Positions 7,593 to 17,284 of a stretch of DNA of 17,284 bases are shown piece by piece; position 1 is the first letter of the stretch, and every line of letters begins with the position of its first letter. The translations under genes were made by a program, and so were the position numbers. The stretch covers positions 1 to 17,284 of the forward strand of contig JAILCJ010000018.1 in the NCBI GenBank assembly GCA_024680445.1. The letters are read 5' to 3'. This DNA comes from Campylobacter sp. Its GTDB lineage: Bacteria; Campylobacterota; Campylobacteria; Campylobacterales; Campylobacteraceae. The notes under the pieces were generated by a model that saw only the letters and a program-made list of their open reading frames with translations, did no database searches and was not told where the DNA came from.

Positions 7593-8489
7593 TTGATACT
7601 AAAAGAAATCAAACGTTACAGCGAGGCAAGATATAAAATCAGAGCCTATCTGCACTATATTTTTACAAGAAATTTGCCAGATCACTCACCAACTCTTAGC
7701 ATAGAAAGCATAAACGAAAGTTTTAAACATATGACTTATGAGGTAGACAAATTTGATGCTTTTTATGTGCTTGACAACAGCGGTTTGCAGGTGCAAGATG
7801 CGATAAGTTTAAATACCGAATTTAAACATGGTGGCGGTGAAAATCGTGCTCACAAGGCGTATTATTACGACTGCATAAAAGAGGGCAAATTTGTTATTAC
7901 CGACCCATATCCCTCAAAATTTAATGGGGAACTTTGTGTAACGGCTAGCATGCCTATATACAATGATAAAAATGAATTAAAATTTATCGCATGCGGAGAT
8001 ATTTCTTTAAAAAATGTCCTTAAAATCGCTGGTATCGGCAATCTCGAAGGATATTTTTCAAATTTCGAACGCTTTTTTTACGCTCTGATTTGTGCGGCTT
8101 TATTTATGATATGCTCGTTTTTATTTTGGCACGGCGTAAGGGGCTTTTTGGAGAAAAGTTTCGTTCATGTAAATGTAGAAGAAATTTTTGAATCAACTAT
8201 CATTTTGACCTTGGCTCTGGCGATTTTTGATCTTGTAAAAACGATATTTGAAGAAGAAGTTATAGGCAAACACCACGATGAAAATAGCATGATATACAAA
8301 ACCATGGTGAGATTTATCGGCTCTATCATAATCGCCCTTGCCATAGAAGCCTTGATGTTGGTGTTTAAATTTGCCATTACGGCACCTGAAAATATCATAA
8401 ACGCCATTTATCTTATCAGCGGCGTAGCCCTTTTAATGGTTGCGCTTAGTGTTTATTTGTTTAGCGTTAAAAAACAGGAGAAAAAATGA
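7593..8489 (+). CDS. pglG: PglG, membrane protein with PDC-like sensor domain (function unknown)
   Basis: Resembles PglG of the Campylobacter pgl locus, a conserved protein with no established step in glycan synthesis. The first 30 residues are basic. Residues about 45-145 look like a PDC/Cache-type sensor fold, with FDAFYVLDNSG at 54-64, a TDPYPS segment at 103-108 and a strand ending FIACGDISL. Four hydrophobic helices follow at about 161-179, 200-218, 240-260 and 270-291, and the C-terminus is basic. No kinase, methyl-acceptor or cyclase domain is present. No membrane helix precedes the sensor part, which is unusual for a PDC domain, so its location is uncertain. The start is TTG with a strong AAAAGGA site at 7581-7587. 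The last 4 bases overlap the hisH start (ATGA). Identification as PglG is good; the sensor call is inference. Confidence 0.85.
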   Translation: MILKEIKRYSEARYKIRAYLHYIFTRNLPDHSPTLSIESINESFKHMTYEVDKFDAFYVLDNSGLQVQDAISLNTEFKHGGGENRAHKAYYYDCIKEGKFVITDPYPSKFNGELCVTASMPIYNDKNELKFIACGDISLKNVLKIAGIGNLEGYFSNFERFFYALICAALFMICSFLFWHGVRGFLEKSFVHVNVEEIFESTIILTLALAIFDLVKTIFEEEVIGKHHDENSMIYKTMVRFIGSIIIALAIEALMLVFKFAITAPENIINAIYLISGVALLMVALSVYLFSVKKQEKK

Positions 8490-13564: not shown

Positions 13565-14281
13565 ATGGAACAAAAACCGCAAATTTTATACATTTTACCA
13601 AATTTATTTACAGCTTCAAGTGCCTTTTTAGGCGTTGTAAGCGTGATAGCTAGCATAAATGGAGAATTTACAAAAGCCATAGTTTATATCATACTTTCAC
13701 TGATTCTTGATGGACTTGACGGCAGGATAGCAAGACTAACAAATACCACCAGCAAATTTGGTGTTGAATTTGATAGTTTGGCCGATCTTGTTGCTTTTGG
13801 TGTCGCTCCAGCCGTACTTTTTTATATGTCGATAGGGCATAATTTTGGCAGACTTGGTGCCTTAACAAGTGCCATATTTGTAGTGTTTGGAGCTATTCGT
13901 TTGGCAAGATTTAATGTTACAACCGGCACTTATGAACCAAATGTTTTTATAGGACTTCCTATACCAACTGCAGCAATAATTTGTGCTTTGTATGTTGGCA
14001 TTTATGAAAATTATTACCTTGAAGGTTTTGAGTGGTTTTACTTTGCCTTGGTCTTTTTGCTTTCATTTTTAATGGTTAGCAATATCCGCTATCCAAGCTT
14101 TAAAAAACTAAATTTCAAACAAGCAAATGTCACTCGTATATTAGTTATACTTGTTATTGTTTTTTCTTTGTTATACTTATACCCATTTGAAAGTGCTACC
14201 ATGCTAATGAGTGTTTATGTCATTTATGGCTTGGTAAGAGCTGTGATAATGTTTTGTAAAAACCCTAAAAAGGATGAATAA
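13565..14281 (+). CDS. pssA: PssA, CDP-diacylglycerol-serine O-phosphatidyltransferase
   Basis: Integral-membrane CDP-alcohol phosphotransferase that makes phosphatidylserine from CDP-diacylglycerol and serine. The family signature DGx2ARx8Gx3Dx3D is complete: D49, D52-G53, A56-R57, G66, D70 and D74. The protein starts MEQKPQILYILPNLFTASS, a typical PssA opening, and shows about six hydrophobic segments over 238 residues. ARFNVTTG at 114-121 and FIGLPIPTAA at 128-137 are also characteristic of bacterial type II PssA. The ATG follows the psd homologue by 10 bases with only a weak AAAAGAG ribosome site, which fits coupled translation. Its stop overlaps the ATG of the putative leucine leader peptide (TAATG), whose AAGGA site is in the final pssA codons. 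Confidence 0.95.
   Translation: MEQKPQILYILPNLFTASSAFLGVVSVIASINGEFTKAIVYIILSLILDGLDGRIARLTNTTSKFGVEFDSLADLVAFGVAPAVLFYMSIGHNFGRLGALTSAIFVVFGAIRLARFNVTTGTYEPNVFIGLPIPTAAIICALYVGIYENYYLEGFEWFYFALVFLLSFLMVSNIRYPSFKKLNFKQANVTRILVILVIVFSLLYLYPFESATMLMSVYVIYGLVRAVIMFCKNPKKDE
14242..14250 (+). promoter_or_regulatory. Possible promoter for the leader peptide and leuA within pssA
   Basis: TGT followed by GATAAT (14245-14250) resembles an extended -10, about 30 bases upstream of the leader ATG. Transcription would start near 14257. No -35 is evident. Such a promoter would be needed if leuA is controlled apart from the cheY-pssA cluster. The match is modest. Confidence 0.25.
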
Positions 14282-14352
14282 TGAACACAAAACACATATT
14301 TAAAATTTGCTTACAAAATATCACATATGCACTACTGCTGCTACGCAAGTAG
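14281..14352 (+). CDS. Putative leucine leader peptide upstream of leuA (23 aa)
   Basis: A short frame of 23 codons starts at an ATG overlapping the pssA stop, with a strong AAGGA site (14270-14274) six bases upstream. Near its end are four consecutive leucine codons, CTA CTG CTG CTA (14332-14343), then Arg, Lys and TAG. The two CTG codons look rare for this AT-rich gene set. It ends 54 bases before leuA, the committed enzyme of leucine synthesis. Position, size and Leu run are those of an attenuation leader peptide such as E. coli leuL, where ribosome stalling on Leu codons senses charged leucyl-tRNA. The overlap with pssA also means pssA transcripts carry it. The role is inferred from this pattern. 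Confidence 0.7.
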   Translation: MNTKHIFKICLQNITYALLLLRK

Positions 14353-14400
14353 CACAAATTCTCTTTTTTCACTCATCACAAAAATAAATTTAAAAAAGGA
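14332..14400 (+). promoter_or_regulatory. Candidate leucine-responsive leader RNA structures
   Basis: A perfect 6-bp hairpin, TGCTAC-GCAA-GTAGCA (14339-14354), forms over the last Leu codons and the stop codon. The same 3' arm can instead pair with an earlier CTACT (14332-14336), so two stems compete. A TCTTTTTT tract (14362-14369) can pair with AAAAAAGG (14392-14399), which is the leuA ribosome site, so leuA translation could be masked. The T-tract starts nine bases after the hairpin, too far for a classical intrinsic terminator. The choice between transcriptional and translational control cannot be decided by eye. Confidence 0.4.
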
Positions 14401-14406
14401 CAAATC

Positions 14407-15918
14407 ATGAACAATAAAATTATAATCTTTGATACAACTTTAAGAGACGGCGAACAAAGCCCTGGTGCATCGATGAACACGGCTGAAAAATTACAAATCG
14501 CACTTCAACTAGAACGACTTGGCGTTGATGTTATGGAGGCGGGTTTTGCGGCGGCAAGTCCGGGGGATTTTGAAGCTATAAATTTGATAGCCAAACAAGC
14601 TCAAAAAATTTCAGTTTGCTCTTTGGCTCGTGCTTTAGATAAAGATATAAAAGCGGCTGGTGATGCCATAGCTCCGGCTCCAAATCATCGCATACATACC
14701 TTTATTGCCACAAGTCCTATTCACATGGAATACAAACTAAAAATGAAAGCAGACGAAGTTATAAAACGAGCCGTAGATGCTGTTACATACGCCAAAACCT
14801 TCTGCGATGATGTCGAGTTTAGTTGCGAAGATGCGTGCAGAAGCGATATTTCATTTATGAAAGAAATTTGCGATGCGGTTATAACAGCCGGTGCTAAGAC
14901 GATAAATTTACCAGATACAGTTGGTTATCGTTTGCCAAATGAAATTTATGAAATTTTTAAGCAAATGTGCGATTATATCGGCTCTCGTGCCATAGTTTCG
15001 GCTCACAATCATAACGATCTTGGCCTTGCAGTTGCCAACACCTTTTCTTGCATACAAGCAGGTGCTAGACAGGTTGAATGCACTATAAACGGACTAGGCG
15101 AACGTGCCGGAAATACAGCACTTGAAGAAATAGCCATGGGTATAAAAACCAGAGCAGATTTTTTCGGTTCGCTTTATACCGATATAAATTTTAAAGAAAT
15201 TTATCCTTCAAGTCGTCTAGTGGCAAATATCACAGGCATAGAACCGCAACCAAACAAAGCCATAGTCGGCAAAAACGCCTTTGCACATGAAAGTGGCATA
15301 CATCAAGACGGAGTTTTAAAACACAGAGAAACTTATGAGATAATGAAAGCCGAAGATATAGGGCTTGATAAAAATTCATTAGTTCTTGGCAAACACAGCG
15401 GTCGCCATGCATTTAAAGACAAGCTAAAAACGCTTGGTTTTGAACTCGATGATGAAGCTTTAAATACAGCATTTGAGAAATTTAAAATTTTAGCCGATAA
15501 GAAAAAAGAAGTTTTTGATGACGATATAAGAGCCTTGGTTTCAGAACAAATCATCACGATAGTCGGTGCTTACGAAATTACAGATTTGCTTCAAAGCAGT
15601 TGTGGCAATCTCGCAAGTGCATCTATTAGCATTAAACATGACGACAAAATTTACAGCGATTCTGCACTTGGAAACGGTGCTGCCGATGCGATATTTAAAG
15701 TCATAGATCGCATTAGTGGCATAAGTGGTTTGCTAAAAGATTACAAAGTTACGGCTGTTTCACAAGGTAAAGACGCCCTTGCAAAAGTTGATGTTAAGGT
15801 TGAATTTCAAGGCAATGGTGCAGTCATGGGACACGGACTTGATATAGATACCATGAAGGCAAGCGCAAAAGCCTATGTTGGTGCTTTAAATAGTTATCTA
15901 AAAATCAAAAACATCTAA
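14407..15918 (+). CDS. leuA: LeuA, 2-isopropylmalate synthase
   Basis: Condenses acetyl-CoA with 2-ketoisovalerate, the committed step of leucine synthesis. The 503 residues are typical of the LeuA type 1 family. The catalytic barrel begins [16 protein letters not shown] (8-23; R13, D14 and E16 in the active site). Metal ligands include D14, H200 and H202 in SAHNHNDLG, followed by GLGERAGN at 229-236 and the subdomain with KHSGRHAF. The C-terminal part from about 370 is the leucine-binding regulatory domain, implying feedback inhibition. The ATG has a strong AAAAAAGGA site at 14392-14400. A Leu-codon leader peptide lies directly upstream and a strong terminator directly downstream. No other leu gene follows. 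Homocitrate synthase is an alternative but fits less well with the leader. Confidence 0.95.
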
Positions 15919-15992: not shown

Positions 15993-17117
15993 TTAGTGCG
16001 AAAGGCTTTGTAAAAATTCCACGAGTTTTGCGGCTATTGCGGTGCTGTCAAAATCTTTAGCACGTTTGTAAGCGATTTTTTCGTATTTTTCTCTAAGCTC
16101 TGCCTCGTTTAAAGCCCTTAACATGGCTTCTCGCATTTGTTTTTCATCATCAACGCCAACTAAAATTCCAAATTCATCATCACCCAAAAGTTCCCTAGCT
16201 CCGCTTTTATGATCGGTTGAAATCACCATTTTATCGCAAGCCAAAGCCTCTAATAAAACATTTGAAAAACCCTCGAATCTTGACGCGCTCACAAAGCATG
16301 ACGAGTTTTTTATATGTCTAAAAGGGTTGGTGTCTGTGCCTAGCAGTCGCACCCTATCGGCGATATTTAGGGCGTTTATTTGGGCTTGAAGTTCGTCTTT
16401 TAACGGACCTTTGCCAAGTATGCCAAGGGTGGCACGACTATCGTCGATAGAAGCTATGATACGAATAAGCATGGCTTGATTTTTGCCCTCGTCAAGACGA
16501 CCGATATTTAGAAAAAAAGGCTTAAACTTCGTGTTTAAATCCACGCCTTTCATCTCGTCTATAAGCCCTAAATTTAGGGCATTGTAAAGGACTTTTACCT
16601 TGTTTTTACAAATGCCAAAATTTTCTATCAAATCATCGGCATTACCCTTGGCATTTGCCAAAATCAAATCAGCCTTAGGATAAAGAATTTTAAGCAAAAT
16701 TCTATTTGCAAAACCCCTAAGACCGCTTTTATATATTACAGACGGGCAGCTTCTTTCGCTCATTACCAAAGCCCCTTTAAGCCCAAAAATTCGAGCGATA
16801 GCGGCTATATAGCAAGGACGATTCATAAGCACAAAATGCGTATCGATGCCGATTTTATTGCAAAGTTTTTTATACTGCAAAGCAAGTCTTGGCAAGGCAA
16901 AGGCGAGACGAAAAAGTTTTTTTACACCTTTTTCATAAGGGTCGGAGTTTTCGATAAGGTGGATTTTTACGCTATCTGGCAAAGCATATGAGATGATATC
17001 GCTCATCAAGACCAAATGCACTTCATAGTCTTTGCATAAAAATGGCAAAAGGTTTGAAACGACGCGTTCGGCACCGCCCGGACCCATAGAATATAAAAAC
17101 ACAGCTAATTTTTTCAC
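15993..17117 (-). CDS. pglJ: PglJ-like GalNAc transferase (GT4)
   Basis: GT4 glycosyltransferase closely resembling C. jejuni PglJ, which adds the second GalNAc (alpha-1,4) to the undecaprenyl-linked glycan after PglA. With a GTG start it has 374 residues (C. jejuni about 365). It opens KKLAVFLYSMGPGGAERVV with the acceptor-side GGAE at 14-17; later come LYPKADLILANAKGN at 145-159, GRLDEGKN at 206-213, the EX7E pair E282 and E290 in FEGFSNVLLE, and TDHKSGARELLGDDEFG at 301-317. PglJ fits much better than PglH over these blocks. GTG at 17117 is chosen because it matches the PglJ N-terminus and has GGGGA five bases upstream; a TTG at 17129 would add four residues. It is convergent with leuA and about 14 kb from pglB. 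Acceptor specificity is inferred. Confidence 0.88.
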   Translation of the reverse strand: MKKLAVFLYSMGPGGAERVVSNLLPFLCKDYEVHLVLMSDIISYALPDSVKIHLIENSDPYEKGVKKLFRLAFALPRLALQYKKLCNKIGIDTHFVLMNRPCYIAAIARIFGLKGALVMSERSCPSVIYKSGLRGFANRILLKILYPKADLILANAKGNADDLIENFGICKNKVKVLYNALNLGLIDEMKGVDLNTKFKPFFLNIGRLDEGKNQAMLIRIIASIDDSRATLGILGKGPLKDELQAQINALNIADRVRLLGTDTNPFRHIKNSSCFVSASRFEGFSNVLLEALACDKMVISTDHKSGARELLGDDEFGILVGVDDEKQMREAMLRALNEAELREKYEKIAYKRAKDFDSTAIAAKLVEFLQSLSH

Positions 17118-17284
17118 TTTTATCCCCAATTCTTTTTTATCAAAACACTAAAAATTTATCAAATTTGCTTATAAAATTTAGCCGTAAATATACTAGCGTT
17201 TGGCTTAAAATTTGACTAAAAATAAGAAAAAATTTACTTAAATTTTTAGTAAATTTGATATTTGCTTATTTGTTTAGGTTTGAG
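17118..17284 (-). promoter_or_regulatory. Upstream region of pglJ with a weak promoter candidate
   Basis: This very AT-rich stretch shows no gene. On the minus strand TATAAG (17173-17168) matches the -10 consensus at 5 of 6 bases and would give a leader of about 45 bases before pglJ. A perfect 9-bp inverted repeat, AAATTTACT (17230-17238) and AGTAAATTT (17248-17256), lies further up; it has little GC and could be chance, an operator or the end of a neighbouring unit outside the window. Confidence 0.25.

What the first reader, a model, noticed from the sequence alone, without database searches (positions are those of the whole stretch)
14281..14352. Leucine-codon leader peptide squeezed between pssA and leuA
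A 23-codon frame has a strong ribosome site, four consecutive Leu codons (CTA CTG CTG CTA) just before its end, and lies directly upstream of leuA. This is the classical signature of ribosome-mediated amino-acid attenuation, as known for E. coli leuL. The start overlaps the phospholipid gene pssA, so ribosomes leaving pssA could re-initiate on the sensor and link leucine sensing to the upstream cluster. Attenuation of this type is little described in epsilonproteobacteria as far as I know.
Basis: partly seen in the sequence, partly recalled or inferred. Interest (0 to 1): 0.75.

Follow-up and report, generated by a model that had tools for sequence, protein, structure and literature searches.

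The report
Leucine-sensing leader peptide before leuA
A tiny 23-amino-acid reading frame with four leucine codons in a row sits just before the leucine-synthesis gene leuA and probably lets the cell make that enzyme only when leucine runs short; this kind of switch was already predicted for the group, but here the leucine codons themselves form one arm of a small conserved RNA hairpin.

Summary
It is not chance: 45 of 46 same-genus leuA loci have a leader ORF with a leucine run here. It belongs to LeuL, predicted in 2013 for C. jejuni and most Epsilonproteobacteria with leu genes, and seen by ribosome profiling in C. jejuni in 2025; 'little described' is therefore out of date. Added here: in this genus the leucine codons form the 5' arm of a hairpin ending at or after the stop codon, in 44 of 44 leaders analysed but rarely in other genera (3 of 57 at 5%); the RNA after it is nearly G-free. 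Antiterminator and sequestration of the leuA ribosome site got no support (0 of 32 each). Best model: a ribosome stalled for leucyl-tRNA holds this hairpin open and leuA is transcribed; after release the hairpin closes and transcription stops. Leucine sensing is likely; the readout is inferred, and no expression data exist for this organism.

The parts
14281..14352 (+). leuL leader ORF, 23 codons plus TAG, overlapping the pssA stop by 1 nt
   Evidence: leader in 45 of 46 same-genus loci
14267..14274 (+). ribosome site AAAAAGGA of the leader
   Evidence: sequence; most relatives read AAGGAGAG at this place
14332..14343 (+). control codons CTA CTG CTG CTA
   Evidence: rare codons
14336..14354 (+). 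Leu-codon hairpin in two overlapping registers: TGCTAC-GCAA-GTAGCA (14339-14344 with 14349-14354) and a 7-pair form (14336-14342 with 14348-14354); the stop codon TAG 14350-14352 lies in the 3' arm
   Evidence: present in 44 of 44 leaders analysed; pair counts
14355..14370 (+). tail of the hairpin, CAAA then the T-rich TTCTCTTTTTT, then C
   Evidence: T content differs widely among relatives (3 to 9 of the first 12)
14353..14397 (+). 45 nt without a G between the leader stop and the leuA ribosome site
   Evidence: sequence; comparison
14396..14400 (+). ribosome site AAGGA of leuA
   Evidence: sequence
14407..15918 (+). leuA, 2-isopropylmalate synthase, the presumed regulated gene
13565..14281 (+). 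pssA, CDP-diacylglycerol-serine O-phosphatidyltransferase, directly upstream; its stop overlaps the leader start
14242..14250 (+). possible extended -10 element TGTGATAAT inside pssA; weak
   Evidence: not better than synonymous controls for the window alone (51% as good); pooled over 32 related rows 6.16 against 5.35, 0 of 200

Best explanation
This is a LeuL leader-peptide element that senses leucyl-tRNA for leuA. Ribosomes start at 14281, on the AAGGA site or by re-initiating after pssA, and read to CTA CTG CTG CTA. If leucyl-tRNA is scarce the ribosome stalls on those codons. Because the codons are the 5' arm of the one conserved hairpin, the stalled ribosome holds it open and RNA polymerase goes on into leuA. 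If leucyl-tRNA is plentiful the ribosome reaches TAG, in the 3' arm, and leaves; the hairpin closes and transcription stops in the U-rich, G-free RNA that follows. Shown here: the ORF, its conservation, the rare-codon run, the hairpin and its placement, the G-free spacer. Inferred: translation in this organism, stalling, termination and the response to leucine.
For: Leader with a Leu run between pssA and leuA in 45 of 46 same-genus loci. Rare codons CTA/CTG. Hairpin containing the Leu codons in 44 of 44 leaders analysed; over 21 distinct rows mean -8.0 against -0.6 kcal/mol after codon shuffling, at most 3% of 60 shuffles as good in any row. 97.4% of 114 cells paired and an A-U to G-C change on both sides in 7 of 19 rows. 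In L115 the frame is shifted (peptide ends LLLLLVA) but the hairpin is kept. G-free spacer: mean G 0.7%, zero in 16 of 21 distinct rows, against 15.5% and zero in 0 of 42 other upstream regions. The C. jejuni LeuL RNA ends shortly after the stop codon (PMC3847290) and its start is used (PMC11955535).
Against: The U-tract is poor in several relatives (3 or 4 T in 12 nt in 8 of 21 distinct rows) and the scan lists no terminator at the site. The hairpin has only 5-8 pairs. Only one base pair shows a two-sided change, the number of pairs with such a change does not exceed shuffles (494 of 500 reach it) and no tree was built, so the number of independent events is unknown. A ribosome at the stop codon also covers the hairpin, so release must be quick or the polymerase must pause. 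G033 lacks the leader, and G002 and G037 keep a leader without an intact leuA. No expression data for this organism.
Confidence: 0.5

Rival explanations
1. Rho-dependent attenuation: Rho loads on the G-free RNA after the leader once the ribosome has left; a ribosome stalled at the end of the leader, or the opened hairpin, hinders this. The hairpin pauses the polymerase rather than terminating it.
For: Spacer nearly without G and with 20% C against 15.5% G and 11.2% C in controls; poor U-tracts in several relatives; rho present in this genome, 665 bits against a cut-off of 509.
Against: Only about 45 nt of G-free RNA, most of it beyond the reach of a ribosome stalled on the Leu codons; the window itself has a good T-tract; a G-free spacer could simply be unstructured RNA for leuA initiation; G depletion is milder in leaders of other genera (7.1% in 55 rows).
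Confidence: 0.2
2. Classical three-segment attenuator as in E. coli leuL or trpL (recalled): an antiterminator outside the Leu codons competes with a terminator hairpin.
For: By eye, the segment upstream of the Leu codons (14303-14314) can pair with the hairpin 3' arm and tail, in the window and in C. concisus-type leaders.
Against: That pairing is not better than codon-shuffled controls: 0 of 32 rows at 5%; window 9.5% of shuffles as good. Leu codons lie inside the hairpin instead of before it.
Confidence: 0.1
3. Translational attenuation: the tract after the hairpin or the Leu codons hide the leuA ribosome site until a ribosome stalls, as in cat or erm leaders (recalled).
For: RNAalifold pairs the tract after the hairpin with the leuA ribosome site in the larger set of rows.
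Against: Tail with leuA ribosome site: 0 of 32 rows above shuffles. Leu codons with leuA ribosome site: 0 of 21 in the genus. Masking 14314-14346 as if by a ribosome makes the leuA ribosome site less, not more, unpaired in the model.
Confidence: 0.1
4. No regulation by leucine: a conserved small peptide or a spacer ORF with another role.
For: G033 does without it; G002 and G037 keep an intact leader ORF without an intact leuA.
Against: Conservation of the Leu run in 45 of 46 loci while the rest of the peptide diverges, rare codons and the hairpin constraint; a start used in C. jejuni LeuL.
Confidence: 0.05

Closest known systems
LeuL of Campylobacter jejuni and other Epsilonproteobacteria (PMC3847290; PMC11955535)
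   Same: Short ORF with a ribosome site and a run of rare Leu codons at its end, before leu genes; same proposed role.
   Different: C. jejuni LeuL has 28 aa and 5 Leu codons and precedes leuABCD; here leuA stands alone, the ORF overlaps pssA, and the Leu codons form a hairpin arm. The passages I saw do not mention such a hairpin; the supplements could not be opened.
E. coli leuL attenuator (recalled)
   Same: Leader peptide with four adjacent Leu codons before leuA.
   Different: There the control codons precede alternative hairpins and the leader opens its transcript; here no antiterminator was found and the leader lies behind pssA.
Actinobacterial ilvB leaders and leuA LEU element (PMC1262725, passages)
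   Same: Branched-chain control codons overlapping a candidate terminator hairpin (ilvB); Leu run taking part in a base pairing before leuA (LEU element).
   Different: GC-rich unrelated genomes; the LEU element pairs the Leu run with the leuA ribosome site, which got no support here; the paper cites mutation data not consistent with classical attenuation in S. coelicolor.
pyrBI attenuator of E. coli (recalled)
   Same: A ribosome close behind the polymerase physically prevents the terminator hairpin.
   Different: Senses UTP through polymerase speed, not a charged tRNA through control codons.

Membership tests
Epsilonproteobacterial LeuL leader peptide | 20-35 aa ORF with a ribosome site before a leucine-synthesis gene | tested here: met
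   23 aa, AAGGA, 54 nt before leuA
Epsilonproteobacterial LeuL leader peptide | several Leu codons near the C-terminus, rare ones in C. jejuni | tested here: met
   CTA CTG CTG CTA; CTG 10 and CTA 72 of 584 Leu codons
Epsilonproteobacterial LeuL leader peptide | found at the same place in relatives | tested here: met
   45 of 46 same-genus loci; 104 of 138 loci over the order by an automatic filter
Epsilonproteobacterial LeuL leader peptide | translated, on a short RNA that ends after the stop codon | not testable with these tools
   reported for C. jejuni only
classical three-segment amino-acid attenuator | leader ORF with cognate control codons | tested here: met
classical three-segment amino-acid attenuator | terminator hairpin with a U-tract between control codons and the gene | tested here: inconclusive
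   hairpin conserved, U-tract variable, not listed by the scan
classical three-segment amino-acid attenuator | competing antiterminator pairing | tested here: not met
   0 of 32 rows above control
classical three-segment amino-acid attenuator | derepression when the amino acid is short | not testable with these tools
   needs expression data
Rfam families | match at gathering score | tested here: not met
   0 matches in the window

The most novel reading that the evidence does not exclude
A minimal one-hairpin attenuator: the sensor codons are themselves the 5' arm of the termination hairpin, so a stalled ribosome acts by direct occlusion with no antiterminator. It sits within a run of same-strand genes, and the conserved pssA-leuL stop-start overlap may deliver its ribosome by re-initiation. 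This anatomy is a property of one Campylobacter genus, while other genera of the order keep the leucine leader with a different anatomy, in which Leu codons tend to match the leader's own ribosome site.
Probability: 0.35. Interest if true: 0.55.

Novelty: new member of a known kind. Interest (0 to 1): 0.36.

Why it matters
It supports by independent comparison a leucine switch that, in the papers seen here, rests on a prediction and on ribosome profiling in one species, and it gives a simple testable layout: one short hairpin whose arm is the codon run. If direct occlusion is right, ribosome-mediated attenuation can work with a single hairpin in AT-rich Epsilonproteobacteria, and searches that demand an antiterminator or a strong terminator would miss it. 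The conserved overlap with pssA would also make it an attenuator whose ribosome could come from the gene before it.

Tried and rejected
Antiterminator between the segment upstream of the Leu codons and the hairpin 3' arm: seen by eye, then 0 of 32 rows at 5%. Sequestration of the leuA ribosome site by the tract after the hairpin: suggested by RNAalifold, 0 of 32 rows at 5%. Pairing of Leu codons with the leader's own ribosome site: 3 bp in the window, 0 of 21 rows in the genus, 15 of 57 in other genera; kept as noticed in passing. Own promoter inside pssA: not above control for the window, pooled signal only over related rows. Leucine tRNA for CTA/CTG: Leu(UAA), Leu(CAA) and Leu(GAG) found; Leu(UAG) not seen among 28 tRNA matches in a 226-contig draft, so inconclusive. 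Leader before leuB- or leuC-like genes elsewhere in the genome: none in the three stretches fetched; the stretch before the second leuC-like match (C52:886) was not looked at. The first control set for G content still held leuA itself and was replaced.

Rows dropped before counts: from the hairpin count, L120 (the script mis-set its leuA start; its leader is visible) and L016 (no leader). From the pair count, four of the 21 distinct rows (L022, L024, L027, L119); two leaders of leuA-less genomes were added. One search allowed stems of 4 pairs, of 5. The 34 loci without a leader include contig edges, a broken leuA and loci such as L034, L052 and L184 where a leader-like stretch is visible but failed the filter; some of the 138 loci are very probably the same genome fetched twice (L031/L007, L032/L119).

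Papers: PMC3847290 outline with abstract, passages and section 10; PMC11955535 and PMC1262725 passages; other papers search listings only. Searches. Their listings show no paper whose title or abstract start describes a Leu-codon hairpin in Campylobacter; supplements could not be opened and most subscription journals are not in the library. E. coli leuL and trpL, pyrBI, cat and erm are recalled.

Full report
What is there. The frame at 14281-14352 is as described. It begins on the last base of the pssA stop (TAATG), has AAAAAGGA at 14267-14274, carries CTA CTG CTG CTA at 14332-14343 and ends 54 nt before leuA. Profile matches above the curated cut-offs name PssA (TIGR00473) and LeuA (TIGR00973). 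No Rfam family matches the window.

More than chance. Four consecutive CTN codons occur once in the window over all six frames, four Leu codons of any kind five times. A shuffled 14260-14406 holds an ORF with LLLL in 21 of 5000 trials. CTG is 10 and CTA 72 of 584 Leu codons in 16 window genes.

Conservation. 47 of 48 same-genus genomes match LeuA; G037 has only a broken copy and G002 has none. Of the other 46 loci, 45 have a leader ORF with a Leu run between pssA and leuA, two of them starting with GTG. The exception is G033, where leuA follows pssA directly (this assembly is listed with 6% contamination). The pssA stop overlaps the leader start by 1 nt in 2 and 4 nt in 30 of 32 distinct rows. 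The rest of the peptide varies: 34 of the 45 carry a KFLPKIEIKN core or a close form, the window does not. Over the order, 104 of 138 loci have a leader by an automatic filter.

The hairpin. In 44 of 44 same-genus leaders analysed the Leu codons can pair with sequence at or after the stop codon. Forms are TGCTAC/GTAGCA with the stop in the 3' arm and GCTGC/GCAGC with the stop before the 3' arm. Over 21 distinct rows the mean energy is -8.0 kcal/mol against -0.6 after shuffling codons and tail, and at most 3% of 60 shuffles were as good in any row. In a similar test (stems of 4 pairs or more) 21 of 21 rows of the genus and 3 of 57 from elsewhere pass at 5%. Pair counts on 19 rows: 97.4% of cells paired (shuffles 93.5%), one pair changed on both sides in 7 rows; the number of such pairs (494 of 500 shuffles reach it) and the number of pair types (500 of 500) do not exceed shuffles. 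No tree was built, so this may be one event. Two further signs are independent of that count: in the GCTGC rows the GCAGC arm lies after the stop codon and still matches, and in L115 the frame is shifted so that the peptide ends LLLLLVA while the hairpin is kept.

What follows the hairpin. The window has CAAA and then TTCTCTTTTTT. Relatives have 3 to 9 T in the first 12 nt and the terminator scan lists nothing here, so a canonical intrinsic terminator is not established. The spacer up to the leuA ribosome site has mean G 0.7% and none in 16 of 21 distinct rows; leader spacers of other genera have 7.1%, none in 5 of 55. In 42 regions upstream of other genes it is 15.5%, never zero (23 of the same genus, 18.3%). 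This fits avoidance of structure or Rho loading; rho is present.

Structures that did not hold up. An antiterminator (0 of 32), the tract against the leuA ribosome site (0 of 32) and the Leu codons against the leuA ribosome site (0 of 21) do not exceed controls. The leader as a whole folds no better than shuffles (58 of 200 as good). Masking the bases under a stalled ribosome does not free the leuA ribosome site in the model.

Mechanism. With one conserved hairpin whose 5' arm is the sensor codons, the simplest reading is direct occlusion: a ribosome waiting for leucyl-tRNA on 14332-14343 prevents the hairpin; one that finishes and leaves allows it, and transcription ends before leuA. I put leucine sensing at about 0.85, on anatomy and analogy with LeuL, and this readout at about 0.5. 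The weak point is timing, since a ribosome at the stop codon also covers the hairpin.

Known or new. PMC3847290 predicted LeuL (28 aa, five rare Leu codons, a short RNA ending after the stop) upstream of C. jejuni leuABCD and orthologues in most Epsilonproteobacteria with leu genes. PMC11955535 saw its start codon by retapamulin profiling and, by tBLASTn, generally found it only in C. jejuni or related Campylobacter; the present comparison by position finds leaders more widely, as the 2013 paper said. PMC1262725 noted control codons overlapping candidate terminators before actinobacterial ilvB, the closest precedent for the hairpin. So this is a new member of a known kind, with an anatomical variation conserved in its genus and untested.

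Natural losses. G002 (no leuA match) and G037 (broken leuA) still have a leader ending PLLLLR or PLLLLK after pssA, with a hairpin. They are most simply relics of recent loss, but a role of the leader RNA without leuA is not excluded.

Noticed in passing
leader regions of L049, L060, L065, L066, L068, L179, L182 and others outside the window's genus: Leu codons are complementary to the leader's own ribosome site, for example TGCTCCTTA with TAAGGAGCA in L182. 15 of 57 rows exceed synonymous controls at 5%; own pairs score 14.78 against 13.81 for swapped partners, 0 of 300. Kinship could explain part of it. Absent from the window.
   Followed up: partly
L129 (G037) and L130 (G002), downstream of pssA: Leader ORF with a Leu run kept although leuA is broken (G037) or not found (G002).
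   Followed up: partly
L016 and L128 (G033): The one same-genus locus with a full-length leuA match but no leader; leuA follows pssA directly.
   Followed up: no
L042, L043, L066, L070 and similar Sulfurovum-type loci, after the leader: A recurring CTAAT..ACC / GGT..ATTAG hairpin before leuA, in several followed by a T-run: a candidate terminator distinct from the Leu-codon hairpin.
   Followed up: no
leaders L033, L036, L044, L079, L174, L175, L190-L192 and the C. concisus-type rows: The peptide core LPKIEIKN recurs before the Leu run in several genera, which suggests selection on peptide or RNA beyond the Leu codons.
   Followed up: no
genomes of the unnamed genus g2: The best LeuA matches there are only 47-49% identical, against 66-82% in other genera of the family: probably a different leuA lineage, some with leaders of their own.
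   Followed up: no
window 15993-17129, minus strand: Convergent gene behind leuA matches PglJ above its NCBIfam cut-off; leuA has no leuBCD behind it in the window.
   Followed up: partly
window 7593-8489, plus strand: A 298 aa frame with no NCBIfam match at E 0.001.
   Followed up: no
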